Shown: in pieces, positions 389 through 56,285 of the stretch
Layout: every line of letters starts with the position of its first letter
Numbering within the stretch: the first letter of the stretch is position 1
Source: an uncultured Prevotella sp.
GTDB taxonomy: Bacteria > Bacteroidota > Bacteroidia > Bacteroidales > Bacteroidaceae
DNA length: 64,000 nt
Reading direction: 5' to 3'
Assembly (NCBI GenBank): GCA_900315545.1
Contig: OMZM01000009.1
Location: 28,549-92,548 of the forward strand
Position numbers and translations under genes: made by a program
The notes under the pieces: model-generated
What the model was told of the DNA's origin: nothing
Databases searched by the model: none
What the model saw: the letters and a program-made list of their open reading frames with translations, nothing else

Positions 389-1647
389 AAGTACTGATGT
401 TTGGCTGGGAATATCCTCCACACGTTTACGGCGGACTGGCAACTGCCAACTTCGGTATCGCCGAAGGTCTGCATGCACAGGGAGACATGGACATTATGCT
501 GTGCCTGCCACATCCTTTCGGCGACGAAGACAGGACTGCTGCTAAGCTGATAGCCATGAATGCCGTACCTATAGTGTGGCGAGACATAAAAAGAGAACAG
601 ATAGAGGAACGTGTAGGCAACATTATTTCTGCCGACGACTACTATCGTTACCGAGACCACATATATGCAGACCTGACTCACATAGGCACTAACGAACTTG
701 GCTGTGTGGAGTTTGCGGGAGGATATCCCGAGAACCTTATAGAAGAAATAAACAACTACTCAGCCATTGCAGGAGTTGTGGCGAGAACGGAAGACTTTGA
801 CATTATACATGCACACGACTGGCTGACATACCCTGCGGGAATACATGCTAAACAGATAAGCGGAAGGAAACTGTGCATACATGTACATGCAACTGACTTC
901 GACCGCTCGCGCGGCAACGTTAATCCTACGGTCTACGGAATAGAAAAAGACGGTATGGACCATGCCGACTGCATCATGTGTGTGAGCGAACTGACACGCC
1001 AGACCGTCATAAACCATTACCACCAAGACCCGAGAAAGGTGTTTACTGTACACAATGCAGTATATCCTCTGCAACAGGAGATACAGGACATTCCCCGCGT
1101 AAACCATAAAGGGAAGGAGAAAATCGTAACTTTCTTAGGGCGAATTACGATGCAGAAGGGTCCCGAATATTTTGTAGAAGCTGCGCATCTTGTACTGAAA
1201 CACACGCGAAACGTAAGGTTCTGCATGGCTGGTTCTGGCGATATGATGAACCAGATGATACAGTTGGTTGCAGAAAAAGGCATTGCCGACAGGTTCCATT
1301 TTCCTGGTTTCATGCGCGGAAAGGAAGTATATCAATGCCTGAAAGCATCCGACGTATATGTCATGCCATCTGTCAGCGAGCCTTTCGGCATATCGCCACT
1401 CGAAGCAATGCAATGCGGAACGCCGACGATTATATCTAAGCAAAGTGGTTGCGCAGAGATTCTGACAAACTGCTTCAAGATAGATTACTGGGACATTCAC
1501 GCTATGGCTGATGCTATTTACGCTATATGCAACAACGACTCGCTGTTCAACTATCTGCAAGTGGAGGGCAAACGAGAGGTCGACCAGATAACTTGGGAGA
1601 AGGTTGGACGCTGGATTCGCGAACTATACAACAGGACTTTAAGCTAA
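385..1647 (+). CDS. Glycosyltransferase family 4, glycogen synthase-like
   Basis: A 420-residue GT-B enzyme. The N-terminus MKVLMFGWEYPPHVYGGLA has the glycine-rich loop seen in starch/glycogen synthase-like GT4 proteins. The C-terminal half has the nucleotide-sugar binding E-x7-E motif, EPFGISPLE from about residue 332, preceded by VTFLGRITMQKGPEYF. Its place between a debranching enzyme and a GH57 amylase makes alpha-glucan synthesis or remodelling from NDP-glucose the best guess, but the acceptor cannot be read from sequence. It overlaps the upstream stop by 4 nt, and the GH57 gene follows after 21 nt, so the three form one operon. Confidence 0.85.
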   Translation: MKVLMFGWEYPPHVYGGLATANFGIAEGLHAQGDMDIMLCLPHPFGDEDRTAAKLIAMNAVPIVWRDIKREQIEERVGNIISADDYYRYRDHIYADLTHIGTNELGCVEFAGGYPENLIEEINNYSAIAGVVARTEDFDIIHAHDWLTYPAGIHAKQISGRKLCIHVHATDFDRSRGNVNPTVYGIEKDGMDHADCIMCVSELTRQTVINHYHQDPRKVFTVHNAVYPLQQEIQDIPRVNHKGKEKIVTFLGRITMQKGPEYFVEAAHLVLKHTRNVRFCMAGSGDMMNQMIQLVAEKGIADRFHFPGFMRGKEVYQCLKASDVYVMPSVSEPFGISPLEAMQCGTPTIISKQSGCAEILTNCFKIDYWDIHAMADAIYAICNNDSLFNYLQVEGKREVDQITWEKVGRWIRELYNRTLS

Positions 1648-1668
1648 AACAACATAACATCTACGATT

Positions 1669-2961
1669 ATGAAGAATATTTGTTTATATTTTGAGATACA
1701 CCAGATAACGCATCTGCGCCGTTACCGTTTCTTCGACATAGGCACCGACCACTATTACTATGACGACTTTGAGAACGAGCGTTCTGTCAGCGACATAGCC
1801 ATGCGCTCATATATGCCTGCGCTGAATGTGCTGCATGAGATGATAAAGAAGCACGGAAAATATTTCCGCGTGGCTTTCTCTATATCTGGTGTTGGCATGG
1901 AACAGTTGGAGATGTATGCTCCGGAAGTTCTCGAGAAGTTGCAAGCCATGAACGAGAGCGGCTGCGTTGAGTTTCTGGCAGAGCCTTATTCACACGGTTT
2001 GTCGTCGCTCGTCGACGGCAGTCTGTTTGAGCATGAGGTACATAAGCAGATGCAAAAGATATTTGAGTACTTTGGTCAGAAGCCGAAAGTGCTGCGCAAT
2101 TCATCGCTCATATACAGCGACGAGATAGGTCTGCAAGTTGCCAACATGGGTTTCAAGGGCATGCTGACTGAGGGTGCCAAGCATGTGCTCGGCTGGAAAT
2201 CGCCGCACTATCTCTATCACTGCTCTATGGCTCCGAGCCTGAAACTGCTGCTGAGGGATATTGTTCTGAGCGACGACATATCGCTGCGGTTCAGCAATCC
2301 GCAATGGGAGGGCTACCCGCTGTTTGCCGACAAGTATGTCGAGAGGATTGCAAACATACCGAAGGAGGAGAATGTTATTAACATATTCATGAATCTGTCG
2401 GCTCTGGGAATATCTCAGCCACTGTCTTCAAACATTCTGGACTTCATCATAGCACTGCCAGACTGTGCGAAGCAGAAAGATATTGCTTTTGCCACACCGT
2501 CTGAAATAGTAAAGCAGGAGAAGTCGGTCGGCGCACTTAATGTGCCCGACACTTTGTCGTGGCTGGACGAGGAGCGAGATGTCAGCAGCTGTCTGGGCAA
2601 CGACATGCAGCGAGAGGCATTCAACAAGCTGTACAGCGTGGCTGAACGTGTGCGCATTGCCGACGATTCAAGACTGAATCAGGACTGGGACTATCTGCAA
2701 GACTCCAACAATTTCAGGTTTATGACTACCAAGCCGTCGCATGTCGGACTGAACAGGGGCATATACGACTCGCCTTTCGATGCATTTACCAACTACATGA
2801 ACATTCTCGGCGACTTTATATGGCGTGTCAATTCCATCTATCCGTCGGACATAGACAACGAGGAACTGAACTCGCTGCTGACTACTATCAGGAACCAGGC
2901 TAAGGAGATTGCTAAGAAAGACAAGGAGATTGCAAAGCTGAAGAAGAAGGCTGCAAAATAA
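1669..2961 (+). CDS. GH57 family alpha-amylase/glucanotransferase-like protein
   Basis: A 430-residue protein beginning MKNICLYFEIHQITHLRRY, typical of Bacteroidales GH57 alpha-amylases found beside GT4 and debranching enzymes. There is no signal peptide, so it should act in the cytoplasm on glycogen or malto-oligosaccharides. The segment EFLAEPYSHGLSSL near residue 105 corresponds to a conserved GH57 block. The last 30 residues are a charged coiled-coil tail (repeats of KEIAKKDKEIAK) that is not part of the catalytic fold. It is the last gene of the glycan operon, with a strong hairpin just downstream. Family assignment is firm; exact activity is inferred. Confidence 0.85.
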   Translation: MKNICLYFEIHQITHLRRYRFFDIGTDHYYYDDFENERSVSDIAMRSYMPALNVLHEMIKKHGKYFRVAFSISGVGMEQLEMYAPEVLEKLQAMNESGCVEFLAEPYSHGLSSLVDGSLFEHEVHKQMQKIFEYFGQKPKVLRNSSLIYSDEIGLQVANMGFKGMLTEGAKHVLGWKSPHYLYHCSMAPSLKLLLRDIVLSDDISLRFSNPQWEGYPLFADKYVERIANIPKEENVINIFMNLSALGISQPLSSNILDFIIALPDCAKQKDIAFATPSEIVKQEKSVGALNVPDTLSWLDEERDVSSCLGNDMQREAFNKLYSVAERVRIADDSRLNQDWDYLQDSNNFRFMTTKPSHVGLNRGIYDSPFDAFTNYMNILGDFIWRVNSIYPSDIDNEELNSLLTTIRNQAKEIAKKDKEIAKLKKKAAK

Positions 2962-3030
2962 ATCGGACTGACAAACGCTTATGGTTTGGCTTGTTTGGTT
3001 TGTATTAATATAATAATGTATTTATAATAA

Positions 3031-3073
3031 AATAATAATTCCAAGTACGGTTGACGTACTTGGAATTATTATT
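3031..3073. terminator. Bidirectional hairpin terminator
   Basis: A perfect 19-bp inverted repeat (3031-3049 with 3055-3073) around a 5-nt loop. The arms begin and end in AATAATAATT/AATTATTATT, so a U-rich tail exists in both directions. It lies between the converging ends of the GH57 gene and the secreted protein gene. Confidence 0.85.
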
Positions 3074-3091
3074 GCTATTAGCAGATGATGT

Positions 3092-5113
3092 TTATTTCTT
3101 TATCATCTTCTTGCCGTTCATGATAACGATGCCCTTGTAAGAGTCGTTAACACGCTGACCAGAGATGTTGTACATCATTCCGTTTTCTTCGTTTTCAACA
3201 TTAACTTCTACGATGCCGTCTACGATACCGCTCTCTATTGGGCAGATTTCGAAGATGTCCTTGAATGCTTCTACGATACCAGTGATGTTAACTGGCATTT
3301 CTGTCAGCTGGCTGAGACCTTCTGCCTCGTATGCTTCGAGGTGGAACTTGTTGTAAACCTGAACGTCTGTGTCGCCTTCAGTGATATAGTACTTGTTATC
3401 CTTAGCAACGATAGTTACGTTAGATATTGTAACCAAGTTGTTTACATTGTCCTTAATCTGGCTGAATGTAACTGCTACCGGCTCTGCTTCAGCACCTGGA
3501 TTGCGGAGCACGCCGTCGATGTTTGTGTCGCTGTTGGCAATAGCCTGTGGGTTGTTGTTATATTCGCCGCGTACAACGATGATATTACCATTGAGCATTT
3601 CATTTGCCTCAACACCCTTCAAAGAGTTGTAGAATACAACTGATCCGCTGTTGTCGCGAACGTATGTTGAGTTGTTGCCGTTGTTTGTTGTGAAAGTATA
3701 TAATACCTGTGCTGCGTCGAGTGTAAGGTCAACAACAGTGTTTTTTGGTTGTGCGAGGAACTCAGCAATGTTCTTAGCCTTAACTACTTCGCCTGGCTGT
3801 GGGTCTTCGCCTTCGCCAACCTTTGTCAGCCACAACTGAGGTGTGTCGTTGTACTGTCCGCGAATACCTTCTACTGTGTATGTTCCGTCAGCAGAAATCA
3901 TGCCAGAAATCTTGAACTCGTCGTAGAGCTGGATAACCTGGTTGTTGCCCTCGAAGATGTAGTAGCGCTTGCTTGTCTCGCTTACCTGTACCTCCTTGAT
4001 GACTGCGTCCTTAATCTTGTAAACCTCTGTCATCAGTGGCTTGTTTGCCAACTGGTTGGCTGTTGTTTCAACAGGAGTTACTGTGCCTGCTGTTGCTGTT
4101 ACGTCTACTGTATAGCCTTTTTCAACCTTAGCTTCGTCTACACCGGCATAAACTACACGTTTAGCAGTGATTGTACCATTGAGCTTGTCGCCCTGCTTAA
4201 CGTCCTGTCCGAGATAGTAAACGAGTACAGAGCCTGTTGCGTCCTTGATAACAGTGTTGTTGTTGCCGTGTCCGAGTACGACTGCATCTTTCACTGTCAG
4301 CACTGCGTCTGTGTTTTCTTCGAGGTTGAGGAATGCAGCGATGTTATCTACTGTTGGTACGTCCTGCTTTACAAACTCTTTCTCTGCTACTGCCTGCGAA
4401 ATTTCATCCATTGCTCTTACGGTGCAGCTTTCTTTTATAGTAAAAGGACCTTCGTACAACAATGCCTTATCGCCTGATGGGTCAGAGCCGTCGAGTGTGT
4501 AGTAAATCTGTGCTGACTCGCGGTTGATTGAAATTTCAACTGTTGTTGAGCCTACGAAAGGAGAGTTACCCTTTATAGTGATTTCTGCAGGGATTTCCTG
4601 ACCAGCGCCAACTACAGTCATTGTCAGTGATGAAATCTGTGTGTTGCCTGCTACAGAAAGTACAACTTCGTGAGCCTGTCCTGTCCATGTAGCACTGCTT
4701 TTGTTTGCTTTGAGTGTACCTTTGTCTACAGTGTTTCCTTCGTTCCATTTTCCACCTGCAATGTTCATGGCTGTAATGTCCATGTTAGCAGGAGCAGTAA
4801 TGGTCAGCGTACCAGAGTAAAGGCGCAGACGTCCCTTGCCTGTTGCTGTCAGTTCCCAGAGGCGGTTATCGTTCTGAGCACTTTCTTCCTTTGGGGAAAC
4901 AGTTACTGTTGCACCGCTGATGGCAGCAGATGTTGTTGCTACAGTGAAGTCGCCGTCATGTACTGCATCCTCTCCACTGCCAGAAGACAATCCCATTCCC
5001 GGGAAAATTGTCTGATAATCTTTGTCGAAATCGAACGTAATGTCGTCGGCAAAAGATACATTGAACATTGCGCAAAGCAATGCTACGAGTGAATAACGTA
5101 AAAATTTGTTCAT
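3092..5113 (-). CDS. Secreted multidomain protein with chitobiase-like domain and type IX-like C-terminal domain
   Basis: 673 residues. A signal peptide (MNKFLRYSLVALLCAMFNVSFA) is followed by an unassigned beta-rich region to about residue 175. Next, at about 177-247, is a chitobiase/beta-hexosaminidase C-terminal-like fold (YYTLDGSDPSGDKALLYEGPF). Then come two copies of an OB-fold-like unit (about 250-440 and 445-640), each with an N-N-N-T/S-x-V-x-D-x-(T/S)-G-S-V pattern. The end, YNISGQRVNDSYKGIVI followed by NGKKMIKK, matches the sorting-type domain common in Prevotella secreted proteins. No catalytic domain is recognised, so a cell-surface binding role is only a guess. It has its own promoter and a terminator. 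Confidence 0.7.
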   Translation of the reverse strand: MNKFLRYSLVALLCAMFNVSFADDITFDFDKDYQTIFPGMGLSSGSGEDAVHDGDFTVATTSAAISGATVTVSPKEESAQNDNRLWELTATGKGRLRLYSGTLTITAPANMDITAMNIAGGKWNEGNTVDKGTLKANKSSATWTGQAHEVVLSVAGNTQISSLTMTVVGAGQEIPAEITIKGNSPFVGSTTVEISINRESAQIYYTLDGSDPSGDKALLYEGPFTIKESCTVRAMDEISQAVAEKEFVKQDVPTVDNIAAFLNLEENTDAVLTVKDAVVLGHGNNNTVIKDATGSVLVYYLGQDVKQGDKLNGTITAKRVVYAGVDEAKVEKGYTVDVTATAGTVTPVETTANQLANKPLMTEVYKIKDAVIKEVQVSETSKRYYIFEGNNQVIQLYDEFKISGMISADGTYTVEGIRGQYNDTPQLWLTKVGEGEDPQPGEVVKAKNIAEFLAQPKNTVVDLTLDAAQVLYTFTTNNGNNSTYVRDNSGSVVFYNSLKGVEANEMLNGNIIVVRGEYNNNPQAIANSDTNIDGVLRNPGAEAEPVAVTFSQIKDNVNNLVTISNVTIVAKDNKYYITEGDTDVQVYNKFHLEAYEAEGLSQLTEMPVNITGIVEAFKDIFEICPIESGIVDGIVEVNVENEENGMMYNISGQRVNDSYKGIVIMNGKKMIKK

Positions 5114-5174
5114 AAAATACTTGTTTTTTATTGTTTATAATTTAAAGATTTAGTCCTTATATATATAAAGTATG

Positions 5175-5205
5175 CAAAAGTAGTAATTCTTTCACAACCA
5201 CCAAA
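5175..5205 (-). promoter_or_regulatory. Promoter for the secreted protein gene
   Basis: On the minus strand TACTTTTG (-7 box, 5182-5175) lies 19 nt downstream of TTTG (5205-5202). This is the Bacteroidota TTTG/TAnnTTTG promoter form, about 60 nt upstream of the start at 5113. Confidence 0.7.
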
Positions 5206-5267
5206 GAGATTGCACAAAATTTATAATTATTTGACGTTTCGACATGAAATGACTTAGAAACGACTTC

Positions 5268-5718
5268 CCTACAAAAACCGTGCCAAACTCGTCTGAATTT
5301 TCCTTTGAGCCGAAAAATGATGAAATTTTTTGACAGGGAAAAACTCTCCAAATAGAATCGGAACAGCCTCTGAAAGTGCAAAAATTTGTTAAATTCAGAG
5401 TCGGCGATAATTGTTAAAAATGTCAAAGAGTATCTTTGAGGCACCTGTTTCGTCTATTTTGCCCTGCCTGACATAGCGTCTGACACCCTCAAACACTATG
5501 TCTGACATCCTCAAACAGTGTGTTTGACAATGTCAAACATGCTCTTTGACAATTTTAACATATATGTTTCTCGCATAAAAGGCTTATATTTAGGGCTAAC
5601 AAACTGACTGTCAAGCGATTGCAGAAGTGTGCGATTTTTGGGCATATTTTGCCCCTGCAATTTCAGAAACGACTTTCGAGGGCACTCACGCGACAGTAAA
5701 CGGGCGAATATTGATTAG
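5268..5718 (+). repeat. Dispersed 451-bp non-coding element, copy A
   Basis: One of three copies of a non-coding element; this copy defines the + orientation. It begins CCTACAAAAACCGTGCCAAA and ends in TGATTAG. The core at 5481-5568 is four imperfect 22-nt units starting TGAC (5481, 5503, 5525, 5547), three with CTCAAAC or GTCAAAC inside. The core is enclosed by inverted arms: TGTTAAAAATGTCAAAGAG near 5412 and CTCTTTGACAATTTTAACA near 5552. The right third holds TTTTGCCCCTGCAATTTC and GACTTTCGAGGGCACTC. No open frame is conserved between copies. It fills most of the gap between divergent genes at 3092-5113 (-) and 5844-6278 (+). Confidence 0.9.
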
Positions 5719-5772
5719 CATTTTTTGCATGCGAATGACTTTGCTGGAAGAAAAAAACGTCTTGCCTGATTG

Positions 5773-5802
5773 TTGATATTCGGGGAATTTGTCGTACCTT
5801 TG
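5773..5802 (+). promoter_or_regulatory. Promoter for the NUDIX gene
   Basis: TACCTTTG (5795-5802) is 19 nt downstream of TTG (5773-5775). The start codon is 41 nt further on. Confidence 0.65.
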
Positions 5803-5843
5803 CATAAGATATCACTGCAAAAACAAGAAAAAACGGAATTGAC

Positions 5844-6278
5844 ATGTACACATATCGCTACCCCCACACCGCCGTTACAGTAGACGCAGCAGTGTTTGCA
5901 CGCACCGCAACAGGCACAAAAATATTGCTCATAGAACGGAAAAACGAGCCCTGCAAGGGCATGTGGGCTTTTCCGGGAGGCTTCATGAACATCGACGAGA
6001 CTGCCGAGCAGGCTGTCGTGCGCGAGCTGCGCGAGGAAACAGGGCTGCAGCTGGCAGCGCTGACACAGGTGGGCGCATTCACGAAAGTAGACCGCGACCC
6101 GCGCGAGCGCGTCATAACCATTGCCTTCTATGCCATCCTGGACAGCGAGGAGACGGTCTGCGCCGACGACGATGCGGCACGCGCAAGATGGTTCAGCATA
6201 GCCAATCTGCCGCCTTTGGCATTCGACCACGCACACATACTCAGAGAAACAATGAAGAGAATAAGGTTTCTGTTGTAG
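5844..6278 (+). CDS. NUDIX hydrolase
   Basis: 144 residues. The Nudix box G-x5-E-x7-R-E-U-x-E-E-x-G-U is complete at residues 46-68 (GFMNIDE ... RELREETGL), so metal-dependent hydrolysis of a nucleoside diphosphate linked to another group is expected. The sequence resembles ADP-ribose pyrophosphatase/MutT-like members (GMWAFPGGF; DPRERVITIAFYA), but the substrate cannot be fixed. It is a single gene with its own promoter, just right of repeat copy A and followed by a separate promoter for the TonB receptor gene. Confidence 0.88.
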   Translation: MYTYRYPHTAVTVDAAVFARTATGTKILLIERKNEPCKGMWAFPGGFMNIDETAEQAVVRELREETGLQLAALTQVGAFTKVDRDPRERVITIAFYAILDSEETVCADDDAARARWFSIANLPPLAFDHAHILRETMKRIRFLL

Positions 6279-6344
6279 GCAAAACACAGAACAATCTATT
6301 ACGACAAGACCGTAAACGACGGAAAAAATCATTATTTTTTAGTA

Positions 6345-6375
6345 TTGTAAGCGTTGTTGGTAATGTGTACCTTTG
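6345..6375 (+). promoter_or_regulatory. Promoter for the TonB-dependent receptor
   Basis: TTG at 6345-6347, a 20-nt gap, then TACCTTTGCA with the -7 box at 6368-6375. The leader to the ATG at 6403 is only about 20 nt, which leaves no room for a riboswitch. Confidence 0.7.
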
Positions 6376-6402
6376 CAGCACATTTTTTAACAACGATTCA
6401 AT

Positions 6403-8808
6403 ATGAAGAAAACAACAACTATCTTATTATTTCTTATTATAGGCATATCGTATGCCTTTTCGCAAGATACATATTCCATTCTTTACGGCGACGTGAAAAG
6501 CAAAGCTGACGGAAAACACATCCCTCACGCCACGATAACCGTAAAAGGCACCAACCTTAGGACAAAGTGCGACGACAGAGGACATTTCATTCTGTCAGAC
6601 ATACCAGCCGGCACTCATACCGTTGTCGCATCGCACGACGGCTTCTCTGAGCAGGAAATGGAATTGCTGATGGAGCCAAACAAGAGGACCGGAGCTTTCT
6701 TCTTGCTCGAAGAAGATGCTCTGGAACTGAATCAGGTAGTGGTAACTGGTACAAGAACACAGCACTATCTGAAGAATGTGCCCATCAGGACAGAGGTACT
6801 GACCTCGCAGGCAATAACAAACAAGAATGCACAAAATCTCTTCGAGGCTCTTGAAGGCGTGGCAGGCGTCAGAGTTGAGCAACAATGTCAGGCTTGCAAC
6901 TTCTCTATGGTCAGGATGCAGGGACTTGGCGCCGAGCATACTCAGGTGCTTATCGACGGCGAACCGATATATTCAGGCTTGGCAGGTGTCTACGGATTGC
7001 AGCAGATAGGCACCAACGACATCGACCGCCTGGAAATAGTCAAGGGAGCAGGGTCTGCACTTTATGGAAGCAGTGCCGTTGCCGGAGCCATCAACATCAT
7101 AACGAAGGAACCCACGTTCAAGCCGTATGTCAACGCCGACGTGCAATTTGGAAACTGGGGACACAAGACCTACAATGCCTCAGCAGGCATGAGACGCAAC
7201 AAGATAGGCGTAAACATATTTGCCCAGCGTCTGGAGGCAGATGCCGTAGACAAGACACAAGACGGCATGACACGCAGTGAGGTAAAGCACAAGGATGGCA
7301 TATCAGACCGCGTAAAGAGTCAGCTCAACAACATCGGAATGGGGCTGTATTTCTTCAGTCCCTTAGCACAAAGCGACAAACTCACTCTCCGCGTGAAAGC
7401 AATGGACGAATTTCGTGCAGGAGGAATACTCGTAGACGACACATATCTCAACCCATATACCGAAGGCACAGAGAACATAAAGACAAACCGACTGTCGGCT
7501 GACATGAACTATACACTGCCCATTGGCAGCAAATCCACCTTCAACATTGCGGCAGCCTATGTATATCACAAACGCAATGCTACCAACGATACATTCCTGA
7601 GAAGCTATAAGGACTCACACGACGGAGAAAATCCAAGCGTGGATATAATGCGTCCCTATCTGGCAAAAGAAAAGACTTTCACACCATCAATGAGCTTCAC
7701 GACTACAATGGGCAGCCACACCCTGCTGCTCGGGGCACAGGGGTCGTTCACCCGACTGCGTGAAAGCGGACTATACTGCATCGACGATGAGGAGAACACT
7801 GAATACTACGGAACAGCATACACGTCGCTCAGCAAGAAGCATGCCAATGAGATTGGTTTCTTCGTGCAGGACGAATGGACCAACGTCTTGCCAGGACTGA
7901 CTGTCGTTCCAGGTATGCGACTTGACATACATAAATCGGGCGAAGAGTACGACTCTGATGAGAAAGTATTCAATGGGACATTCCCCAAGACCAATTTTGA
8001 AAAAACTGTAGTTGCTCCGAGACTTGCCATAAAATACGACATTGATCCGAAACTTGTGCTGAGAGCCAACTTTGGAACAGGTTTCCGTGCGCCATACGGC
8101 TTCTCGGAGGATTTGCATCTTTGCAGCGGCTCACCACGCGTATGGAAGTCTTCGACACTGAACGGAGAACGAGCAATAAGCCTCAACCTCTCGGCAGACT
8201 ACTATGGGAAAAACGTGCAGGTAAGCCTCAATCTCTTCAGGACAAACCTATACGACAAAATAGAGTTCAGCAGCGCAGACGAAAACATAAAGAAACTGGG
8301 ATATACCTATCAGTGGCAGAATATCGACGATGCTTATGTACAAGGCATTGAAATAGGAACGAAGATAAAAATAGCACGCAACATGAAAACAGGTATTAAC
8401 TGGACACTGAATCAAGGCAAATACAATCATGCAAGAAACGACTGGAAAGGTACTGAATATGAGAATGACAGCAGATTTATTTCGCGTTTCCCTATGATGA
8501 CAGGCGACATCAGCCTTGACTACACTCCAGGAAGCTGGACTTTCTCAATGACAGGCTCGCTGCAGGGAAAGATGTACATAGACTACTATGCTGAGGACGA
8601 AACAAACTCTAAAATAAAGAAAACTCCTACATTCATGCTGTTCAACTGCAGGATAGCCAAGCAGCTTGGCAACGCGTTCACGGTATATACTGGAGGAAAG
8701 AACATATTTGGATATATACAGGATGAAAAGCACACCGACGATGCAGCATTCATGTATGCACCCGTATTTGGAGCAACCTGTTATGTTGGAACAAGCATAA
8801 AAATATAA
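6403..8808 (+). CDS. TonB-dependent outer membrane receptor
   Basis: 801 residues. Signal peptide MKKTTTILLFLIIGISYAFS, then a carboxypeptidase-regulatory-like domain (about 25-105), then a plug domain starting LNQVVVTGTRTQHYLKNVP. The plug includes DRLEIVKGAGSALYGSSAVA, the standard receptor plug signature. The rest is a 22-strand-type barrel with aromatic strand ends, finishing in YVGTSIKI. It lacks SusC-specific features and has no SusD partner, so it resembles BtuB/FepA/HmuR-type receptors for a metal chelate, haem or cobalamin. A C-x-x-C (QQCQACNF, near residue 164) sits in the plug. No substrate gene is adjacent. A hairpin terminator follows. Confidence 0.85.
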   Translation: MKKTTTILLFLIIGISYAFSQDTYSILYGDVKSKADGKHIPHATITVKGTNLRTKCDDRGHFILSDIPAGTHTVVASHDGFSEQEMELLMEPNKRTGAFFLLEEDALELNQVVVTGTRTQHYLKNVPIRTEVLTSQAITNKNAQNLFEALEGVAGVRVEQQCQACNFSMVRMQGLGAEHTQVLIDGEPIYSGLAGVYGLQQIGTNDIDRLEIVKGAGSALYGSSAVAGAINIITKEPTFKPYVNADVQFGNWGHKTYNASAGMRRNKIGVNIFAQRLEADAVDKTQDGMTRSEVKHKDGISDRVKSQLNNIGMGLYFFSPLAQSDKLTLRVKAMDEFRAGGILVDDTYLNPYTEGTENIKTNRLSADMNYTLPIGSKSTFNIAAAYVYHKRNATNDTFLRSYKDSHDGENPSVDIMRPYLAKEKTFTPSMSFTTTMGSHTLLLGAQGSFTRLRESGLYCIDDEENTEYYGTAYTSLSKKHANEIGFFVQDEWTNVLPGLTVVPGMRLDIHKSGEEYDSDEKVFNGTFPKTNFEKTVVAPRLAIKYDIDPKLVLRANFGTGFRAPYGFSEDLHLCSGSPRVWKSSTLNGERAISLNLSADYYGKNVQVSLNLFRTNLYDKIEFSSADENIKKLGYTYQWQNIDDAYVQGIEIGTKIKIARNMKTGINWTLNQGKYNHARNDWKGTEYENDSRFISRFPMMTGDISLDYTPGSWTFSMTGSLQGKMYIDYYAEDETNSKIKKTPTFMLFNCRIAKQLGNAFTVYTGGKNIFGYIQDEKHTDDAAFMYAPVFGATCYVGTSIKI

Positions 8809-8901
8809 GAAATGTTATTGCCGGAGTGAAAAACTCCATGATACAGAAACATAACAACCTTTTACAGGGACTGACAGAACATACATTTTGCATAGCAACA
8901 A

Positions 8902-8938
8902 AATAATAAAGCCGCCACCCAGTGACGGCTTTATTATT
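8902..8938. terminator. Bidirectional hairpin terminator
   Basis: A 13-bp perfect stem, AATAATAAAGCCG paired with CGGCTTTATTATT, around an 11-nt loop. It lies between the converging receptor and lpxA-like genes. Confidence 0.85.
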
Positions 8939-8990
8939 GTATAAATCAACGAATGTATTTACAACGGATTGACTTTTTGGGCATCTCGAC

Positions 8991-9767
8991 TTATTTCTTG
9001 CCGACAATACCCTTAGTCGTCTCAGAGAGGAAACTGACAATTTTCTGTATCTCCTCACTGTCGGGAATCTGCTCGCGCACCTGGTTGACAGCGTCGAACA
9101 GGCTCGTTTGTCCGTGAAAGACAAGTCGATAGGCATTGCCAATATGCTTTATCACCTTATCGTCAATAGCATCAAACTGACACATCATCTTGTTTACACC
9201 GCCATACTGACCATTGTTGTTGACGATGACATAAGGCGGAATATCGCTTGAGAATGTGGCTCCTGCCTGTATCATGGCGCGATCGCCGACGCGTGTGCCG
9301 GCATTTTCGATAACACTCGACAAGAAAATTACGCCGTTTCCTATCTCGCAGTCGCCGGCAATCTTCGTACCGTAGCCTACGACACAGTTGTTGCCCATCT
9401 TTGTATCGTGGGAAATATGGGCGCCTTCCATAAGCACGTTGTCGTCGCCAATGACTGTCTTGCCACCACGATGAGTAGCACGATTGATGACAACATTCTC
9501 GCGGATGATATTGTTCTCACCTATAATACATTCCGACTTCTCGCCCCTGAAATTGAAATCCTGCGGCAATGCACCTATGACAGAGCCCTGATGCACCTTG
9601 TTGTGTCCGCCCATGCGCGTACCGTTGAGGATGCTGACAAACGGAAAGATGATACAGTTGTCGCCTATCTCTACATCGCCTTCTATGTAGACGAATGGGA
9701 AAATCTTGCAATTCTGACCTATTTTCGCTCTTGGGTCTATTTCTGCTTTTGGACTTATATCGTTCAT
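8991..9767 (-). CDS. lpxA: Acyl-ACP--UDP-N-acetylglucosamine O-acyltransferase (LpxA-like)
   Basis: 258 residues from the ATG at 9767; a TTG three codons upstream is less likely. The N-terminal two thirds are hexapeptide repeats forming a left-handed beta-helix. The segment LMEGAHISHD contains the histidine (about H120) that matches the LpxA catalytic base, and SSDIPPYVIVNNNG matches the conserved DVPPYVIAQGN block. A helical C-terminal domain follows. Known LpxA transfers a hydroxyacyl chain to UDP-GlcNAc, the first lipid A step. The other lpx genes are not beside it; it lies 93 nt after an efflux operon, so it could be a second, specialised copy. Confidence 0.82.
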   Translation of the reverse strand: MNDISPKAEIDPRAKIGQNCKIFPFVYIEGDVEIGDNCIIFPFVSILNGTRMGGHNKVHQGSVIGALPQDFNFRGEKSECIIGENNIIRENVVINRATHRGGKTVIGDDNVLMEGAHISHDTKMGNNCVVGYGTKIAGDCEIGNGVIFLSSVIENAGTRVGDRAMIQAGATFSSDIPPYVIVNNNGQYGGVNKMMCQFDAIDDKVIKHIGNAYRLVFHGQTSLFDAVNQVREQIPDSEEIQKIVSFLSETTKGIVGKK

Positions 9768-9860
9768 AAATATCAACGTTTTATACTTTTTGCATTAAAT
9801 TGACATGCACCAGTAATGGTGTTTGTACGTTCTCGGCACGAGGATAACAGCCTACAGCCG

Positions 9861-11249
9861 TTATTTTGCACCTCCGCCAAGTGCCTGATAGAGATTGACA
9901 ACAGCCTGCATCTTGGCAAAATCGTCGTAGACTTTCGACAACTGCGCGTTGAGCAGAGTCTGCTGTGCAGTTATGATTTCAAGATATGAACTGCCCGAAC
10001 TGCTGAACAACAGTTTCGTGTCGGCAACATTCTTCTCAAGAATTTCTATCTGACGTGTTTCCAACTTGCTCTTTTCATCGCTCGTGTTATACTGAACCAG
10101 TGCGTTAGACACTTCACTGCCAGCCTGAAGAACAGCATTCTGCCATGTGTTGTAAGCCTGCTCATACTGAATTTTTGCAACACGCAAACCGGCAGTTAGC
10201 TGTCCGTGCATGAAGATTGGCTGCACCAGACTGCCTACAGCAGAAAGAAGCCACTTGCCCGGATTTACAATTCCTGCGCCGGCACTGTTGGTAAACGTTC
10301 CTGTAGGACTGATAGTCAGACTCGGATAGAAGCGTGAGCGGGCTGTCTCTATGCCATAGAAGCACTGTGCCAGCTGCATCTCGGCAGCATGAACGTCGGC
10401 ACGGTTTGCCAGCAACTGTATGCCTACGCCGGTAGAAAACTCCGACGGCAGACTCTGGTCTTCGAGCTTGCCACGCGCAATATGCTGTGCCGGTTGACCG
10501 AGAAGAAGCGACATTGAGTTTTCTACTTCACGTATCTGACGCTTCATGTCTACGGCTTGTGTCTGCACAGAGAAATAGTTGGCTTCGGCACTCTGAACAC
10601 TTGTAGAACGCGCACGTCCCAACTGCATCTGCAACTGCATCAGTTCCCATGTATCTTTCGTCAGCGTTGTCATGTCGTCGAGCAACTCAAGCTGACGGTC
10701 GAGCATAAGAAGCGTGTAATACATATTGGCTATTGCCGAAATGACATTACACTTCACAAGAGTCTGATAGTCCTTAGTCTGCAAGAGCAGCATCTGTGCT
10801 GAACGCTTCTGCGACAGGAATGTTCCAAACAAATCGACATTCCACTGGGCTGCTATTGGCAACTGGTATGTTTTCGTCGGTTTATTACCGTCCCACGAAG
10901 CGATTGTTCCGCTGGGTGCGAAAGTGAACTGTGGAACGAAAGCCAGCTTTGCAACTTTCAGCTGTTCCTCTACCATTCTCACATTGAGGGCTGCATTGAG
11001 CAAATCAGGATTGTTTGCAAGCGCAGTTTCTATGTGCTGCTGCAACTGCGGATCGGTAAATACCGAGCGCCACTCAAGATTGCCAAAACTTGTGGTGTCG
11101 CTGACAACAAGGGTGTCGGTAGCCGATGCCACGTCGCGCATCAGTCCACTTGTGTTTATTTCCGGACGCTCATAGGTTCCGAATAGACTCTTGCATCCTG
11201 CAAGAGCAAACATACTTACACCTATTATTAATATATTACGTATTTTCAT
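9861..11249 (-). CDS. Efflux outer membrane lipoprotein (TolC/OprM/NodT family)
   Basis: 462 residues. The lipobox FALAGC puts the lipidated cysteine at residue 19. The body has the two repeated long-helix regions of outer membrane factors, with IAAQWNVDLFGTF in the first half and LLSAVGSLVQPIF in the second. It should form the outer membrane channel of the RND pump encoded just upstream; only 3 nt separate the two genes, so they are coupled. It is the third gene of the adaptor-pump-channel operon. Substrates cannot be predicted. Confidence 0.9.
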   Translation of the reverse strand: MKIRNILIIGVSMFALAGCKSLFGTYERPEINTSGLMRDVASATDTLVVSDTTSFGNLEWRSVFTDPQLQQHIETALANNPDLLNAALNVRMVEEQLKVAKLAFVPQFTFAPSGTIASWDGNKPTKTYQLPIAAQWNVDLFGTFLSQKRSAQMLLLQTKDYQTLVKCNVISAIANMYYTLLMLDRQLELLDDMTTLTKDTWELMQLQMQLGRARSTSVQSAEANYFSVQTQAVDMKRQIREVENSMSLLLGQPAQHIARGKLEDQSLPSEFSTGVGIQLLANRADVHAAEMQLAQCFYGIETARSRFYPSLTISPTGTFTNSAGAGIVNPGKWLLSAVGSLVQPIFMHGQLTAGLRVAKIQYEQAYNTWQNAVLQAGSEVSNALVQYNTSDEKSKLETRQIEILEKNVADTKLLFSSSGSSYLEIITAQQTLLNAQLSKVYDDFAKMQAVVNLYQALGGGAK

Positions 11250-17925: not shown

Positions 17926-18378
17926 CTAATCATTTTTCGGCTCGTTTACTGCCGCGTGAGTGCCCTCGAAAGTCATTTTGAAAATCGCAGGGGCAAAATA
18001 TGCCCAAAATTCGCATGATACCATAATCCTTTGGCCATCAGATTATTAACCACAAATATAAGCGTTTTATGCAGGAAACATAAGTGTTAAAATTGTCAAA
18101 GAGCATGTTTGAGATTGTCAAACACACTGTTTGAGGCGGTCAGACATAGTGTTTGGGGGTATCAGGCATTGTGTTTTGCAGGGCAAAACAGGTGAAACAG
18201 GAGCCTCAAAGATACTCTTTGACATTTTTAACAGTTGTGTCTGGTCTTGAAATTAACGGTTTTTTGCACTTTCAGGGGCTGTAAATTTTCTATTTGGAGA
18301 GTTTTCCTCTGTCAAAAGTTTTCATAATTTTCGGGGTCGGCAGGGAAGGCGCGAACAGTTTGGCACGGTTTTTGTAGG
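17926..18378 (-). repeat. Dispersed 453-bp non-coding element, copy B (inverted)
   Basis: Reverse-complement copy of the element at 5268-5718. Read on the minus strand it starts CCTACAAAAACCGTGCCAAA (from 18378) and ends TGATTAG (at 17926). The four 22-nt units and both boxA-like arms are kept, with scattered substitutions and one CAATCTCAAAC where the other copies have CAATGTCAAAC. Length differs by only 2 bp. It lies between the small membrane protein and the DUF1599 gene. Confidence 0.9.
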
Positions 18379-42066: not shown

Positions 42067-42143
42067 TGTAATCCGATTACAAGCGGCTTGTAAAGACATT
42101 ACAAACTATTCGTAACAGCGTTACAGACTATCTGTAACAGCAT
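42067..42143. repeat. Array of TTACAA/TTGTAA palindromes with a period of about 22 nt
   Basis: Successive small palindromes: TGTAATCCGATTACA (42067-42081), TTACAAGCGGCTTGTAA (42077-42093), TTACAAACTATTCGTAA (42099-42115) and TTACAGACTATCTGTAA (42121-42137), then CATTAC. Starts of the last three are about 22 nt apart. They lie in the gap between the divergent rsmI and tdk genes. The spacing (two helix turns) suggests multiple protein-binding sites or a degenerate tandem repeat. Confidence 0.7.
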
Positions 42144-42397
42144 TACTGCTTAGGTGTAAAAACTCCATAGAATAACTGCTTTATTTTCAATGGTTTACAG
42201 TCGTTTTCGCGCTACTGCCTGCCGTCGGTTCCGAAGAAGACGTCTCTGCTTGTCGTCTGTGCGGCTATACCTATTATTAATATATACATACGGTTTTCAT
42301 TTGCACATAAAAACATTTCCGGCAGGCTTTCCGACCGCAGCCGACAATGTTTTTTAATATTTTTCGGATAATAGTCGTGATATTCAAGAAAAAAACC

Positions 42398-44287: not shown

Positions 44288-44360
44288 GATCCGTTAGCTC
44301 AGCTGGTAGAGCACAACACTTTTAATGTTGGGGTCTTGGGTTCGAGCCCCAAACGGATCA
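44288..44360 (+). tRNA. tRNA-Lys (anticodon TTT)
   Basis: 73 nt. Acceptor stem GATCCGT pairs with ACGGATC, discriminator A. D arm GCTCAGCTGGTAGAGC, anticodon stem CAACA/TGTTG with loop CTTTTAA (anticodon TTT at 44321-44323), T arm with GGTTCGAGCC. The 3' CCA is not encoded and must be added by the nucleotidyltransferase. Followed directly by a terminator hairpin. Confidence 0.97.
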
Positions 44361-44390: not shown

Positions 44391-44529
44391 TTTATAATAA
44401 AACAAAATCATATAACTAATAACAGCATTTCTATTTTGAAATACTATATTTTTAATTCCTCGCATTGTTTAGCAGGCACATTAGCAACATAAAATCGGCA
44501 ATAGAAGTGCTCTATTGCCGATTTTAATG

Positions 44530-44926
44530 TGGAGCTGGAGGGAGTCGAACCCTCGTCCAAACAGGGAAACCATACGCTTTCTACACGCTTATTCTGGACT
44601 TCATTTTCGTGCAGCGACAAGACCCAGACCACCAATCGCAACCTTATCCTCTAAAATTTCATCATGACACTGAGGCTTGCCAAGACTATTTCCGATTTAA
44701 CCTGCGCCGCTTGTTCTTCAGATTCGGAACAACATCTTCGGAGCGACGTCTCGTTCTCCTACCTTGTAAGAGAATTAAGCTCGTAATCTACTGTGCTTCG
44801 ATTAAGCAGCGAGAGCATACTCATTGTTGCCAACTAAATTTTCGACCGAAGGGATTATGGAGTCTTCAGTCGCGACTCCGCGTGCTTACATACCATCTCA
44901 TCCTGCTGTCAAATCCAGTCAACCCC
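44530..44926 (-). ncRNA. ssrA: Transfer-messenger RNA (tmRNA)
   Basis: 397 nt. The 5' end GGGGTTGACTGGATTTGACA (from 44926) and the 3' end GGGTTCGACTCCCTCCAGCT pair through the 7-bp tRNA-like acceptor stem GGGGTTG/CAGCTCC, leaving a discriminator A at 44530. The T arm GGAGGG-type stem is visible. The tag frame on the minus strand (44831-44802) reads GGC AAC AAT GAG TAT GCT CTC GCT GCT TAA, giving GNNEYALAA, a degradation tag with the usual ALAA end. It rescues stalled ribosomes with SmpB. Confidence 0.95.
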
Positions 44927-45065
44927 AGACTGAGCAAATATGATTTGCGTCGGCAAAAGTACGAATTTATTTTCATTTGGCAAAGAAATTATAAGTTTTG
45001 TGTCAGATTATTGCAGTAAAAGACACTTTTTGCAGAAAACTTATCTTTTTTAGACTAAAATATTA

Positions 45066-45073
45066 TACCTTTG
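45066..45073 (+). promoter_or_regulatory. -7 box of the exopolysaccharide operon
   Basis: TACCTTTGCA about 66 nt upstream of the ATG at 45139. Upstream TTTG is not clear, so recognition may differ from the housekeeping promoters here. Confidence 0.55.
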
Positions 45074-45138
45074 CAATAAATTTCGTAATTATCAGTTATA
45101 TTATTGAATAGGTATATAAAAGAAACAACATTCTGAAA

Positions 45139-47727
45139 ATGAAAAAATATATTTTTCTATTCGTAGCATTCTTTGCTACAATGAACATATATGCACAGTC
45201 GTCTATGACCGACGAGCAGGTGATGCAACAGATTATAAAGGAGCACGAGCGTGGGTCTTCGCAACAGCAGATTGTTACGAAACTGATGCAGAACGGTGTA
45301 GACATCAACCAGATACGCCGTGTTCGCGCGAAGTATGAACGCATGCAGAAGAACGAGGGTCTCGGCGCCGTGCGGGACAAGTCGCAGACAAAAACTGACG
45401 ACCGCACCCGCACATACAATGCAAAGGAACGCCGAGACATGGAGAAATATAAAGACGAAAACAAATTCTCTGATTTCCGCCGCGAGGATGGAACACGCGT
45501 CGTAACACGCCATACATACGACAAAGACGACGAGGAATATCTTGACATGGAAGACGAGATGAACGACTGGATGCCAATCGACACCATTGCCATGTATGAA
45601 AAACTGGTGCGCGAAATGGAGCGTGAATCAAAAAAGCGCAAGGTTTACGGTCGCGACATTTTCAACAACAAGGAACTGACTTTCGAGCCGAACATGAACA
45701 TTGCCACACCAGCCGACTATCGTCTTGGTCCTGGCGATGCTGTATTTATAGAAATCTACGGTGCCTCACAGAAAACCATAGAGAGTACGGTATCTCCCGA
45801 CGGAACAGTTACGATAGAAGGCTTCGGACCTGTAAGCGTTTCCGGACTTACCGTTTCGCAGGCAAATGCACAGCTTCGCCAGAAATTAGGAGCAAGATAC
45901 AGCAGTTCAAAAGTTCGCCTTACAGTAGGTCAGACACGCACCATTATCGTCAACGTAGCCGGCGAAGTGAAATTTCCAGGCACCTATACCCTATCGGCTT
46001 TCTCAACAGTGTTCAACGCACTGTATATGGCTGGCGGTATAACCGATATTGGTACACTGCGTAACATAAAAGTGTACAGAGGCGGCAAGCTCATCAGCGT
46101 TGTCGACATCTACGACTTCATACAGAACGGCAAGCTTGCAGGCAATGTGCGCCTGACCGACAACGACATGATTGTTGTTGATGCGTACGACTGTCTTGTT
46201 AACATTACCGGTAAGGTGAAACGCCCAATGTACTATGAGATGAAGAAAAACGAGAGCGTAGCCTCACTGCTGAAATATGCAGGAGGTTTCACTGGCGATG
46301 CCTACAAGAATTCTGTCAGACTGATTCGTAAAAACGGAAAGGAATATTCCGTGTTCAACATCGGCGAGTTTGACATGGCTTCCTTCCATGTTACCGACGA
46401 AGACTCCGTTTACGTTGACTCAATCATACCGCGTTACGACAACATGGTAGAACTCAAGGGTGCAGTCTATCGTCCTGGCATGTATCAGGTTGGAGGCGAC
46501 GTAACGAGTGTACGCACATTGCTTGAAATGGCAGACGGCATCAAGGAAGAAGCATTTACGGCACATGCCGTTATGCACCGCATGCGCGAAGACCGCACAC
46601 TGGAAGTAATTTCAGTAGACATAGACGGAATATTGAACGGTCGCGTGGCAGACATTCCTCTAAAAGCAAACGACGTACTGTTCATTCCAACGAAGCAGAA
46701 CATGATGGAAGAACAAACCGTAACCATACACGGCGAAGTCTACTTCCCTGGAAAATACAAGTACGCAGCAAACCAAAGCATAGAGTCTTTCATACTGCAA
46801 GCCGGTGGTATAAAAGAAACTGCCTCAACGATGAAAGTAGATGTCTCGAGGCGAGTCAACAATCCCAATGCTACTGCAACAGACTCTATTATTGCCCACA
46901 ACTATACATTTACACTGAAAGAAGGATTTATTATCGACGGTGAACCGTCGTTCACGCTCCAGCCATTCGACCAAGTGTACGTACGCAAGAGTCCTGGCTC
47001 ATACGAGCAGCAAAACGTGGAAGTAGAAGGAGAAGTCCTTTTTGAAGGTTCTTATGCATTGTCAACACGTACTCCACGCCTGTCCGACCTTATCAGAGCC
47101 TGTGGTGGAGTAACAGACCGCGCATACATCAAAGGTGCAAAAATAATGAGAAAATATAACGATGCCGAAATTGAGCGTCTGAAAGAAATTCAGGACAAGG
47201 CACGCGAGCAGGCAGAACTAAACCTGCAAGAACTTGTAGCAAAAAGCGGTAATGCAAACATGGCAAACATAAAAAGCAGCAACCAGCTTGAAAAATATAA
47301 GATTTCAAATTCTTATGCAGTCGGTATAGAATTGGAGAAAGCCCTTGCAAAGCCAGGCAGCGACTTCGACATCGTGCTGCGCGAAGGAGATAAACTTATC
47401 GTTCCAGAATATAACGGAACTGTGAAGATTAACGGCGAAGTTATGAACGCCAACACTGTTGCATATCGTGAAGGCAAAAGCGTAAGCTACTATATAGACC
47501 AAGCCGGTGGCTTCTCAAGCAATGCAAAGAAAAGCCAAACATATATCATATATATGAACGGCAACATGGCTAAGGTAGGCCACAATGCTAAAGTCATGCC
47601 GGGATGTGAAATCGTAGTTCCAGCCAAATCAGCAAGTCGCAGAACCATGGCTGAGACAATGAGCATCGCAACAAGCGCAGGTTCTTTGGCTGCCGTCATA
47701 GCTACAATAGCAAACTTACTGAAATAG
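45139..47727 (+). CDS. Polysaccharide export outer membrane protein (Wza-like, SLBB domains)
   Basis: 862 residues. Signal peptide MKKYIFLFVAFFATMNIYA, a helical N-terminal extension (MTDEQVMQQIIKEHERGSSQ), a Poly_export domain (PADYRLGPGDAVFIEIYGAS; VSPDGTVTIEGFGPVSVSGL at about 195-260), then repeated SLBB-type domains marked by the G-x-V-x-x-P-G-x-Y pattern (GEVKFPGTYTLS, GAVYRPGMYQVG, GEVYFPGKYKYA), and a C-terminal hydrophobic segment. It should form the outer membrane pore for export of exopolysaccharide. First gene of a five-gene run with the chain-length, flippase, polymerase-like and GT4 genes. Confidence 0.9.
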   Translation: MKKYIFLFVAFFATMNIYAQSSMTDEQVMQQIIKEHERGSSQQQIVTKLMQNGVDINQIRRVRAKYERMQKNEGLGAVRDKSQTKTDDRTRTYNAKERRDMEKYKDENKFSDFRREDGTRVVTRHTYDKDDEEYLDMEDEMNDWMPIDTIAMYEKLVREMERESKKRKVYGRDIFNNKELTFEPNMNIATPADYRLGPGDAVFIEIYGASQKTIESTVSPDGTVTIEGFGPVSVSGLTVSQANAQLRQKLGARYSSSKVRLTVGQTRTIIVNVAGEVKFPGTYTLSAFSTVFNALYMAGGITDIGTLRNIKVYRGGKLISVVDIYDFIQNGKLAGNVRLTDNDMIVVDAYDCLVNITGKVKRPMYYEMKKNESVASLLKYAGGFTGDAYKNSVRLIRKNGKEYSVFNIGEFDMASFHVTDEDSVYVDSIIPRYDNMVELKGAVYRPGMYQVGGDVTSVRTLLEMADGIKEEAFTAHAVMHRMREDRTLEVISVDIDGILNGRVADIPLKANDVLFIPTKQNMMEEQTVTIHGEVYFPGKYKYAANQSIESFILQAGGIKETASTMKVDVSRRVNNPNATATDSIIAHNYTFTLKEGFIIDGEPSFTLQPFDQVYVRKSPGSYEQQNVEVEGEVLFEGSYALSTRTPRLSDLIRACGGVTDRAYIKGAKIMRKYNDAEIERLKEIQDKAREQAELNLQELVAKSGNANMANIKSSNQLEKYKISNSYAVGIELEKALAKPGSDFDIVLREGDKLIVPEYNGTVKINGEVMNANTVAYREGKSVSYYIDQAGGFSSNAKKSQTYIIYMNGNMAKVGHNAKVMPGCEIVVPAKSASRRTMAETMSIATSAGSLAAVIATIANLLK

Positions 47728-47750
47728 TAAAATTAGAAGCAACAGATACA

Positions 47751-48794: not shown

Positions 48795-48836
48795 ATCTGA
48801 CTTCCTTGCAAAAGGATACAAGTACACGGGAATACT

Positions 48837-52793: not shown

Positions 52794-52818
52794 CAGATCT
52801 GACATATCTGCTATATAC
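52786..52818. terminator. Hairpin between convergent GT4 and GH16 genes
   Basis: Perfect 13-bp inverted repeat GTATATAGCAGAT/ATCTGCTATATAC with a 7-nt loop, starting inside the last codons of the GT4 gene. No T-run follows on either side. Confidence 0.6.
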
Positions 52819-52836
52819 CGGCATTTGCATATACTG

Positions 52837-53637: not shown

Positions 53638-53651
53638 TACTAATTTTGCTA

Positions 53652-53659
53652 CAAAAGTA
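53652..53659 (-). promoter_or_regulatory. -7 box for the GH16 gene
   Basis: Minus-strand TACTTTTG, only about 15 nt from the start at 53637. It excludes a start at 53691. Confidence 0.5.
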
Positions 53660-55834: not shown

Positions 55835-56285
55835 CCTGCAAAAACCGTGCCAAAATGAACGAAATATTTTTTCGGAGCGAAAAACGATGAAAAATTTTGA
55901 CATGGGAAAAGTCTCCAAATAGATTTTCCACAGCCCCTAAAACTGCAAAAATCTGTTAAATACCATGCCGGATATAATTGTTAAAAATGTCAAAGAGTAC
56001 CTTTGAGGTGCCTATTTCATCTATTTTGCCCTGCCAGGCACTATGCCCGACAACCCAAAACATAGTGTTTGACATCCTCAAACAGTGTGTTTGACAATGT
56101 CAAACATGCTCTTTGACAATTTTAACATATACAATTTATGCACACAAGGCATATATTTACAACTAACAAGCTGACTGTCAGATGATTACAGACACTCGCA
56201 AAATACGGGCGTATTTTGCCCCTTTGATTTCAGAAACGACTTTTGCGGGCATTCTCGCGGCAGTAAACGGGCAAAAATTGATTAG
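55835..56285 (+). repeat. Dispersed 451-bp non-coding element, copy C
   Basis: Same orientation as copy A. It starts CCTGCAAAAACCGTGCC and ends TGATTAG, the same length to the base as copy A. Three of the four 22-nt units are clear and the first is degenerate (CCCGACAACCCAAAACATAG); the central TGTTTGACAATGTCAAACAT and arm CTCTTTGACAATTTTAACA are identical to copy A. It fills the gap between converging genes (GT2 and ATP-grasp) in the exopolysaccharide locus, so it does not serve as a promoter for either. Confidence 0.9.

What the first reader, a model, noticed from the sequence alone, without database searches (positions are those of the whole stretch)
5268..5718. Three copies of a near-constant-length non-coding element of about 451 bp
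Copies at 5268-5718, 17926-18378 (inverted) and 55835-56285 are 451, 453 and 451 bp long. Both ends are conserved (CCTRCAAAAACCGTGCC at one end, TGATTAG at the other). They hold blocks such as ATTTTGCCCTGC and GACTTTCGAGGGCACTC. No shared open frame exists. The contexts differ (divergent, tandem and convergent gene pairs), so it is not a promoter of a fixed gene class. It has no clear terminal inverted repeats and I see no consistent target duplication. This looks like a discrete, dispersed, possibly mobile or chromosome-organising repeat in a Prevotella-like genome.
Basis: partly seen in the sequence, partly recalled or inferred. Interest (0 to 1): 0.78.

Follow-up and report, generated by a model that had tools for sequence, protein, structure and literature searches.

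The report
Evenly spaced palindrome arrays in Prevotella
The three repeats belong to a large set of non-coding DNA elements placed about every 12,000 bases along the chromosome; each carries a row of short palindromes repeated every 22 bases, and related bacteria carry rows of different sequence but the same 22-base design, which suggests an unrecognised way of marking or folding bacterial chromosomes.

Summary
The three window copies belong to a family with about 138 core pairs in the 2.29 Mb genome and 101 copies or fragments in the 1.42 Mb I read: mostly 448 bp long, intergenic, no ORF, no terminal inverted repeats, no target duplication.

The working unit appears to be a core of palindromes repeated every 22 bp. 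Copies are more evenly spaced than random intergenic placement (0 of 2000 simulations). A second, unrelated 22-bp array (TTACA-N7-TGTAA; one at window 42077-42159) fills long gaps: 11 of 13 gaps over 18 kb hold one, 2 of 70 shorter gaps do; joint CV 0.37 (0 of 3000).

A motif-blind 22-bp scan finds different arrays in four other genus members, all intergenic, over-evenly spaced in three; a fifth shows little. Related arrays occur in another family of the order.

Between two near-identical strains one element differs by 8.9% without indels, coding DNA by 0.4%.

Best reading: cooperative protein-binding arrays that punctuate the chromosome; the protein is unknown. Target-immune mobile elements are the main rival. 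Closest described repeat: PINSR of Prevotella intermedia.

The parts
5268..5718 (+). Type I element, copy 1 (448-bp family model)
5412..5430 (+). left core arm TGTTAAAAATGTCAAAGAG
5480..5560 (+). 22-bp-period palindrome array (sites start at 5480, 5502, 5524; a fourth, inside the right arm, at 5546)
   Evidence: lag 22 is the top lag over 71 full copies pooled; the fourth site is read from the sequence
5542..5560 (+). right core arm CTCTTTGACAATTTTAACA
17926..18378 (-). Type I element, copy 2; arms 18215-18233 and 18085-18103
42077..42159 (+). Type IV array: four sites on the TTACA-N7-TGTAA pattern (two of them imperfect) at 22-bp period, intergenic, of an unrelated motif class, in the long gap between copies 2 and 3
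55835..56285 (+). Type I element, copy 3; arms 55979-55997 and 56109-56127

Best explanation
The elements are distributed protein-binding arrays. Each core is a row of palindromic sites 22 bp apart (two helical turns), so that dimers of a DNA-binding protein would sit side by side on one face of the helix. SHOWN: the 22-bp period; reverse-complement symmetry; intergenic position in all gene orientations; near-constant length of full copies; even spacing of about 12 kb when unrelated motif classes are counted together; the same design with other sequences in other species of the genus. INFERRED: that one or more cooperative DNA-binding proteins occupy the arrays; that array-bound protein marks or anchors chromosomal segments (insulator, loop anchor or nucleoid tether); that selection on this function keeps the spacing while sequence and specificity turn over fast.
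For: Lag 22 is the strongest self-match lag (of lags 4-45) in 6 of 6 families examined, z 6.7 to 65. The motif-blind scan gives 117 lag-22 windows in G000 against 0-18 for each of 20 other lags, and 33, 30, 32 and 8 in G384, G351, G084 and G061 against 0-10; 0 in 50 kb of E. coli. Windows chosen only for direct lag-22 repetition are reverse-complement symmetric (z>3) in 95 of 103 from those four genomes, against 2 of 240 random 88-mers. 0 of 90 testable family-I copies, 0 of 16 type IV arrays and 0 of 107 array centres in the four other genomes lie in predicted genes. Spacing: 0 of 2000 simulations as even for family I; joint CV 0.372, 0 of 3000; 11 of 13 gaps over 18 kb hold a type IV array against 2 of 70 shorter gaps. 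G351 repeats this: its 8 other-class windows lie at least 5.2 kb from the main class (3 of 3000 draws), median distance 6 of 3000. Array-only copies without the longer flanks exist in G000, G351 and G384, which points to the array as the working part.
Against: No binding protein, ChIP, Hi-C or phenotype. G061 has only 8 lag-22 windows in 200 kb and no even spacing (1821 of 3000 simulations at or below its CV). G250 shows 3 lag-22 windows in 100 kb, no more than lags 29 and 30 do there. With HMM copies added, the spacing test weakens to 22 of 3000 in G384 and 7 of 3000 in G084 (G351 stays at 0), and the count of gaps under 3 kb is not significant in G351 (197-312 of 3000). In G384 the separation of main and other classes is weak (median 421 of 3000; one other-class window 452 bp from a main copy); in G084 the median gives 49 of 3000 but the minimum 2117 of 3000. 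The sequence changes fast between strains (8.9% against 0.4%), unusual for a binding site, though position and length are kept. Even spacing can also arise from target immunity. TTTGACANTGTCAAA with at most 1 mismatch occurs only in or beside elements (0 of 89 outside; 4 of 119 at a looser setting), as a copied element would also give.
Confidence: 0.5

Rival explanations
1. Non-autonomous mobile elements whose transposase has target immunity (as Tn7 and Mu do, recalled): the 22-bp sites bind the transposase, which then blocks insertion within several kb of an existing copy, giving even spacing without any host function.
For: 22-bp repeated sites and an exclusion zone of about 6 kb. Both gaps under 5.8 kb in family I (147 and 3552 bp) border a truncated copy, as if a broken copy no longer protected its surroundings. 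Absence from nearly all sampled relatives fits a burst.
Against: No terminal inverted repeats and no target duplication that stands out. Type IV arrays share neither ends nor motif with type I yet lie at least 5.66 kb from any family-I copy (0 of 5000 random draws), so one transposase's immunity would not do. Four of the genomes read (G000, G384, G351, G084) show more than one motif class. A length within 447-450 bp in 70 of 71 full copies whose mean identity is 76% (39 copies) is unlike a decaying MITE. The Mu-transpos_C search gave nothing, but its controls also gave nothing, so it is uninformative.
Confidence: 0.22
2. Transcriptional insulators, terminators or promoters placed between transcription units, regulated by DNA-binding repressors.
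For: Intergenic; medians about 146 and 158 bp to the neighbouring genes. Convergent regions are somewhat over-represented: 22 of 89 for family I and 7 of 16 for type IV, against 32 of 207 intergenic regions of 150 bp or more without an array. BrickBuilt of P. gingivalis has promoter activity (PMC4596501, abstract).
Against: Occurs in divergent (30), convergent (22) and tandem (37) regions; neither a terminator nor a promoter alone fits all three. Local gene regulation does not explain even spacing across unrelated classes.
Confidence: 0.13
3. A family of structured non-coding RNAs.
For: The majority sequence folds strongly in either strand, as palindromes do.
Against: No Rfam match at gathering score in the window or in four other loci searched other than tRNA and tmRNA away from the elements. 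Of the 90 strongest covarying column pairs listed, all but 8 are within 6 bp and they form no helices (71 copies). All gene contexts; array-only versions of unrelated sequence exist.
Confidence: 0.05
4. Old neutral repeat family spread by an extinct process, kept alike by gene conversion between neighbours.
For: Neighbours within 16 kb are more alike, 0.792 against 0.755 for pairs on other contigs (0 of 5000 permutations); best relative on the same contig for 24 of 71, 5.1 expected. Strain differences tend to toggle between states found elsewhere in the family.
Against: Does not explain the 22-bp period shared by unrelated families, the kept length or the joint spacing.
Confidence: 0.1

Closest known systems
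[quoted passage not shown] abstract, passages, and section 3.4 read in full)
   Different: 188 bp; its sequence is in a figure that is not held, so homology and a 22-bp period are untested. Section 3.4 reports no spacing or periodicity analysis and describes it as limited to one species group.
BrickBuilt MITE of Porphyromonas gingivalis (PMC4596501, abstract and passages)
   Same: Bacteroidales, intergenic, tandem short repeat inside a longer element.
   Different: 23-nt direct repeat whose number varies between strains, small inverted-repeat ends, 19 copies.
REPIN/BIME with RAYT transposase (recalled; one REPIN paper seen in a search listing with the start of its abstract)
   Same: Many dispersed intergenic palindromes.
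   Different: No Y1_Tnp (RAYT-type) match in G000 nor in 5 of the 6 other genomes searched.
parS, matS and Noc sites (recalled)
   Same: Dispersed palindromes bound by chromosome-organising proteins.
   Different: Those are single short sites; here arrays at 22-bp period. No parS-like match in the 1.42 Mb read; one ParB_N match per genome in 7 of 7.

Membership tests
PINSR | about 188-bp PINSR consensus | not testable with these tools
   Consensus is in a figure; sequence not held
PINSR | intergenic, non-coding, high copy, no terminal inverted repeats | tested here: met
MITE | terminal inverted repeats | tested here: not met
   by inspection the two ends differ in the 39 oriented full copies
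MITE | target site duplication | tested here: not met
   39 copies, words of 2-10 bp: the largest excess is a 2-mer 8-9 bp outside the ends, 10 seen against 4.1 expected
REPIN/RAYT | RAYT (Y1_Tnp) gene in the genome | tested here: not met
   none in G000 (92% complete); 1 of 7 genomes has one; 5 of 14 controls rang
ParB/parS | canonical parS consensus (recalled) | tested here: not met
   none in 1.42 Mb; the other 38% of the genome not read
Mu/Tn7-type element with target immunity | Mu-transpos_C transposase in the genome | tested here: inconclusive
   nothing in 7 genomes, but nothing in the 14 controls either
Structured ncRNA family | Rfam match or long-range covarying helices | tested here: not met
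CRISPR array | repeat-spacer array with unique spacers | not tested
   no CRISPR test was run

The most novel reading that the evidence does not exclude
Prevotella, and perhaps Bacteroidales more widely, punctuate their chromosomes about every 6-13 kb with intergenic arrays of 22-bp-phased palindromes. The array code comes in many interchangeable sequence classes, several per genome, read by a family of fast-evolving cooperative DNA-binding proteins; together they define chromosomal segments or mark self DNA.
Probability: 0.35. Interest if true: 0.95.

Novelty: categorically new. Interest (0 to 1): 0.85.

Why it matters
No bacterial repeat family that I can name combines even spacing, sharing of that spacing between sequence-unrelated classes, and one fixed helical period across species. 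If the arrays are bound, they would be a distributed chromosome-punctuation system in a dominant gut and rumen genus, and they make the question of what sets domain spacing in bacteria testable by deletion. The motif-blind 22-bp scan can be run on any genome. Eight searches of a PMC library (some listings capped) returned, in what I saw, only PINSR and BrickBuilt as near matches; preprints and most subscription papers are not in it. 'Categorically new' refers to the shared, spaced 22-bp architecture; PINSR may be an earlier sighting of one member.

Tried and rejected
Terminal inverted repeats: my first alignment seemed to show them because matches on the minus strand had not been turned; once oriented, the ends differ. 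Coding: no frame. Structured RNA: only local covariation, no Rfam match at the elements. Single-donor gene conversion for the strain difference: the best other copy shares the near strain's state at 21 of 41 differences in one pair and 35 of 44 in the other (24 of 41 and 26 of 44 for the G000 state), so no clean donor. RAYT/REPIN: no RAYT in G000. ParB paralogue: none found. Phage and plasmid collections: no match. The full-element searches of relatives scored only the 2 best first-look candidates per genome, so divergent copies could be missed. A palindrome measure on contiguous 16-mers was uninformative and was replaced by whole-window reverse-complement matching (its mean z for random G384 windows came out undefined). 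The lag-22 threshold was set on G000 after the period had been seen, and its margin was loosened from 8 to 6; the other genomes were then scanned without further tuning. Six lag-22 windows in G000 belong to no known class, one of them in a predicted gene. G384, G351, G061, G084 and G250 were taken because they offered a long contig (G061 and G084 also on a guess, not borne out, that one might be P. intermedia); a notebook line calls G384 single-contig, but it has about 40 contigs. Only 400, 400, 200, 200 and 100 kb of them were read. Gene calls come from a simple codon-usage script, not a standard annotator. A P. gingivalis repeat paper (PMC5771137, passages) added nothing. Searches ended in script errors after printing part of their output; one search repeats 77 with the error removed.

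Full report
WHAT WAS CHECKED. The three stated copies align end to end. In the genome that holds the window (G000, 2,288,422 bases, 56 contigs, 92% complete) the core 19-mer with up to 2 mismatches occurs 137 times forward and 139 reverse, against 0 and 0 for the reversed control. I read 1.42 Mb of it as stretches; an HMM made from the copies finds 101 copies or fragments of 60 bits or more: 71 full type I, 11 short type II (matched stretch 319-387 bp, same core, mostly other ends), 7 with type I ends but another core (type III), 7 cut by contig ends and 5 others. One search counts 70 and 8 because one full copy lies at the end of a fetched stretch. In the 71 full copies the length is 447-450 bp but for one of 462; mean pairwise identity in 39 of them is 76%.

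ANATOMY. Left end CnnCAAAAACCGTGCCAAACT, right end CGCGACAGTAAACGGGCGAAAATTGATTA, different from each other; no target duplication stands out; no open frame. A 19-bp inverted pair, 130 bp from start to start, brackets a row of sites such as GTTTGACAATGTCAAAC. Lag 22 is the strongest self-match lag (z 65), lag 44 the second. The type III core instead carries TTACA-type sites, also with top lag 22 (7 copies).

PLACE. 0 of 90 testable copies overlap predicted genes, and all gene orientations occur. Neighbouring copies lie 13.8 kb apart on average with CV 0.55; 2000 random intergenic placements gave a median of 0.86 and none as low; gaps under 6.5 kb number 3 by midpoints (4 by edges) against a simulated median of 32. 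The two smallest gaps (147 and 3552 bp) each border a truncated copy.

A SECOND CLASS FILLS THE GAPS. An intergenic self-comparison, made before the gaps were examined, had shown a group of 18 similar regions; 16 of these carry 84-bp arrays of the type III kind of site with no type I ends, 0 of 16 in genes. 11 of 13 family-I gaps over 18 kb hold one, 2 of 70 shorter gaps do; the least distance to a family-I copy is 5.66 kb (0 of 5000 random draws as large); joint CV 0.372 against a simulated median of 0.600 (0 of 3000). One lies in the window at 42077-42159. Two of the 13 long gaps stay empty.

OTHER SPECIES. A full-element search finds one 170-bp part (G005) in 398 other genomes of the genus and nothing in 398 others drawn from the family; the two samples overlap, and only the 2 best candidates per genome were scored. 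Yet self-comparison of 400 kb from G384 and from G351, both of the same genus, shows in each its own dispersed repeat, and 200 kb from G084 and G061 likewise, the last with only 7 copies. All four have top lag 22. A motif-blind scan counts lag-22 windows of 117, 33, 30, 32, 8 and 3 in G000, G384, G351, G084, G061 and G250; other lags give 0-18 in G000 and 0-10 in the rest, so G250 with 3 is not enriched; E. coli, 50 kb, gives 0. These windows were chosen for direct repetition only, yet 95 of 103 from G384, G351, G084 and G061 are reverse-complement symmetric, against 2 of 240 random 88-mers. 0 of 107 array centres lie in predicted genes. Spacing is over-even on lag-22 windows alone in G351 (0 of 3000), G084 (1) and G384 (5), and with HMM copies added 0, 7 and 22 of 3000; not in G061 (1821). 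The count of gaps under 3 kb is low in G384 and G084 but not significant in G351 (312 and 197 of 3000). Several motif classes share a genome in G384, G351 and G084, and a TTACTTAC/GTAAGTAA-like class occurs in both G384 and G084. Other-class windows keep away from the main class clearly in G351, moderately in G084 and weakly in G384. In 197 other genomes of the order, the type IV pattern with up to 2 mismatches hits 5; four of these are single hits, as the reversed control also gives, but G858, of another family, has 6 sites on four contigs, in arrays of TTACAAC/GTTGTAA-like units at 22 bp.

FAST CHANGE WITHOUT INDELS. A contig filed under MAG RUG13423 is about 99.6% identical to G000 contig 33 over 44701-57450 outside the element (identity falls beyond) and has elements at the same places. 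Coding positions differ at 45 of 11,395, other intergenic at 2 of 608, the rest of the element's own intergenic region at 9 of 285, and the element at 40 of 450 with no gap. A second, partly covered pair differs at 44 aligned sites, with one single-base gap in the element. Changes come in small blocks and tend to switch between states present elsewhere in the family; strong covariation reaches only a few bases. Neighbouring copies are more alike than distant ones (0 of 5000 permutations). Exchange between copies or template switching in palindromes could both act; I could not separate them, and only two orthologous pairs were seen.

READING. The shared, sequence-independent properties are a 22-bp period, symmetry, intergenic position and joint spacing. 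Two helical turns put dimers on one face, which fits cooperative protein binding. Spacing shared by unrelated classes argues for a function exercised at intervals rather than for the history of one mobile element. The protein is unknown: no RAYT match in G000, one ParB_N match and no parS-like site in the part read, and an uninformative Mu-type transposase search. I therefore hold chromosome punctuation by bound arrays as most likely, at even odds, and target-immune mobile elements as the main rival.

KNOWN RELATIVES. BrickBuilt (PMC4596501, abstract and passages) is a 23-nt minisatellite in a MITE. Neither text, as far as read, reports even spacing shared between several sequence classes.

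Noticed in passing
L070 / L082-L084 (G779:C30), 1-51814: The only RUG13423 contig with core matches at up to 3 mismatches; it matches G000 contig 33 at about 99.6% over 12.7 kb outside the element, so it may be a misfiled contig of a near strain.
   Followed up: partly
L082 (G779:C30) 466-9296 against G000:C33 44356-44387: About 8.8 kb present in the near strain and absent from G000, bounded by a roughly 32-bp repeated stretch beside an element: a likely integrated element.
   Followed up: no
L070 about 452-653; G000:C17 16599-16786; G000:C29 112201-112369: A further dispersed repeat of about 170-190 bp, 87-94% identical.
   Followed up: no
G000:C33 flanks of copies at 965, 52275, 60478, 82290, 108990, 118742: Runs of GTTAAC/GTTCCC-like hexamers next to several copies.
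   Followed up: no
G000:C17 83408-83495: A tandem 22-bp repeat with CATATATG-like palindromes that belongs to no class found here; perhaps a further class.
   Followed up: no
L031/L068 (RUG624) about 9850-10023: A lone 170-bp left part of the element, without the rest, in another rumen MAG of the genus.
   Followed up: partly
window 44527-44926 and 44288-44360: tmRNA (minus strand) and a tRNA gene.
   Followed up: no
7 of 101 copies in the G000 stretches read: Copies lie at contig ends: the repeats seem to break the assembly, so whole-genome counts are probably low.
   Followed up: no
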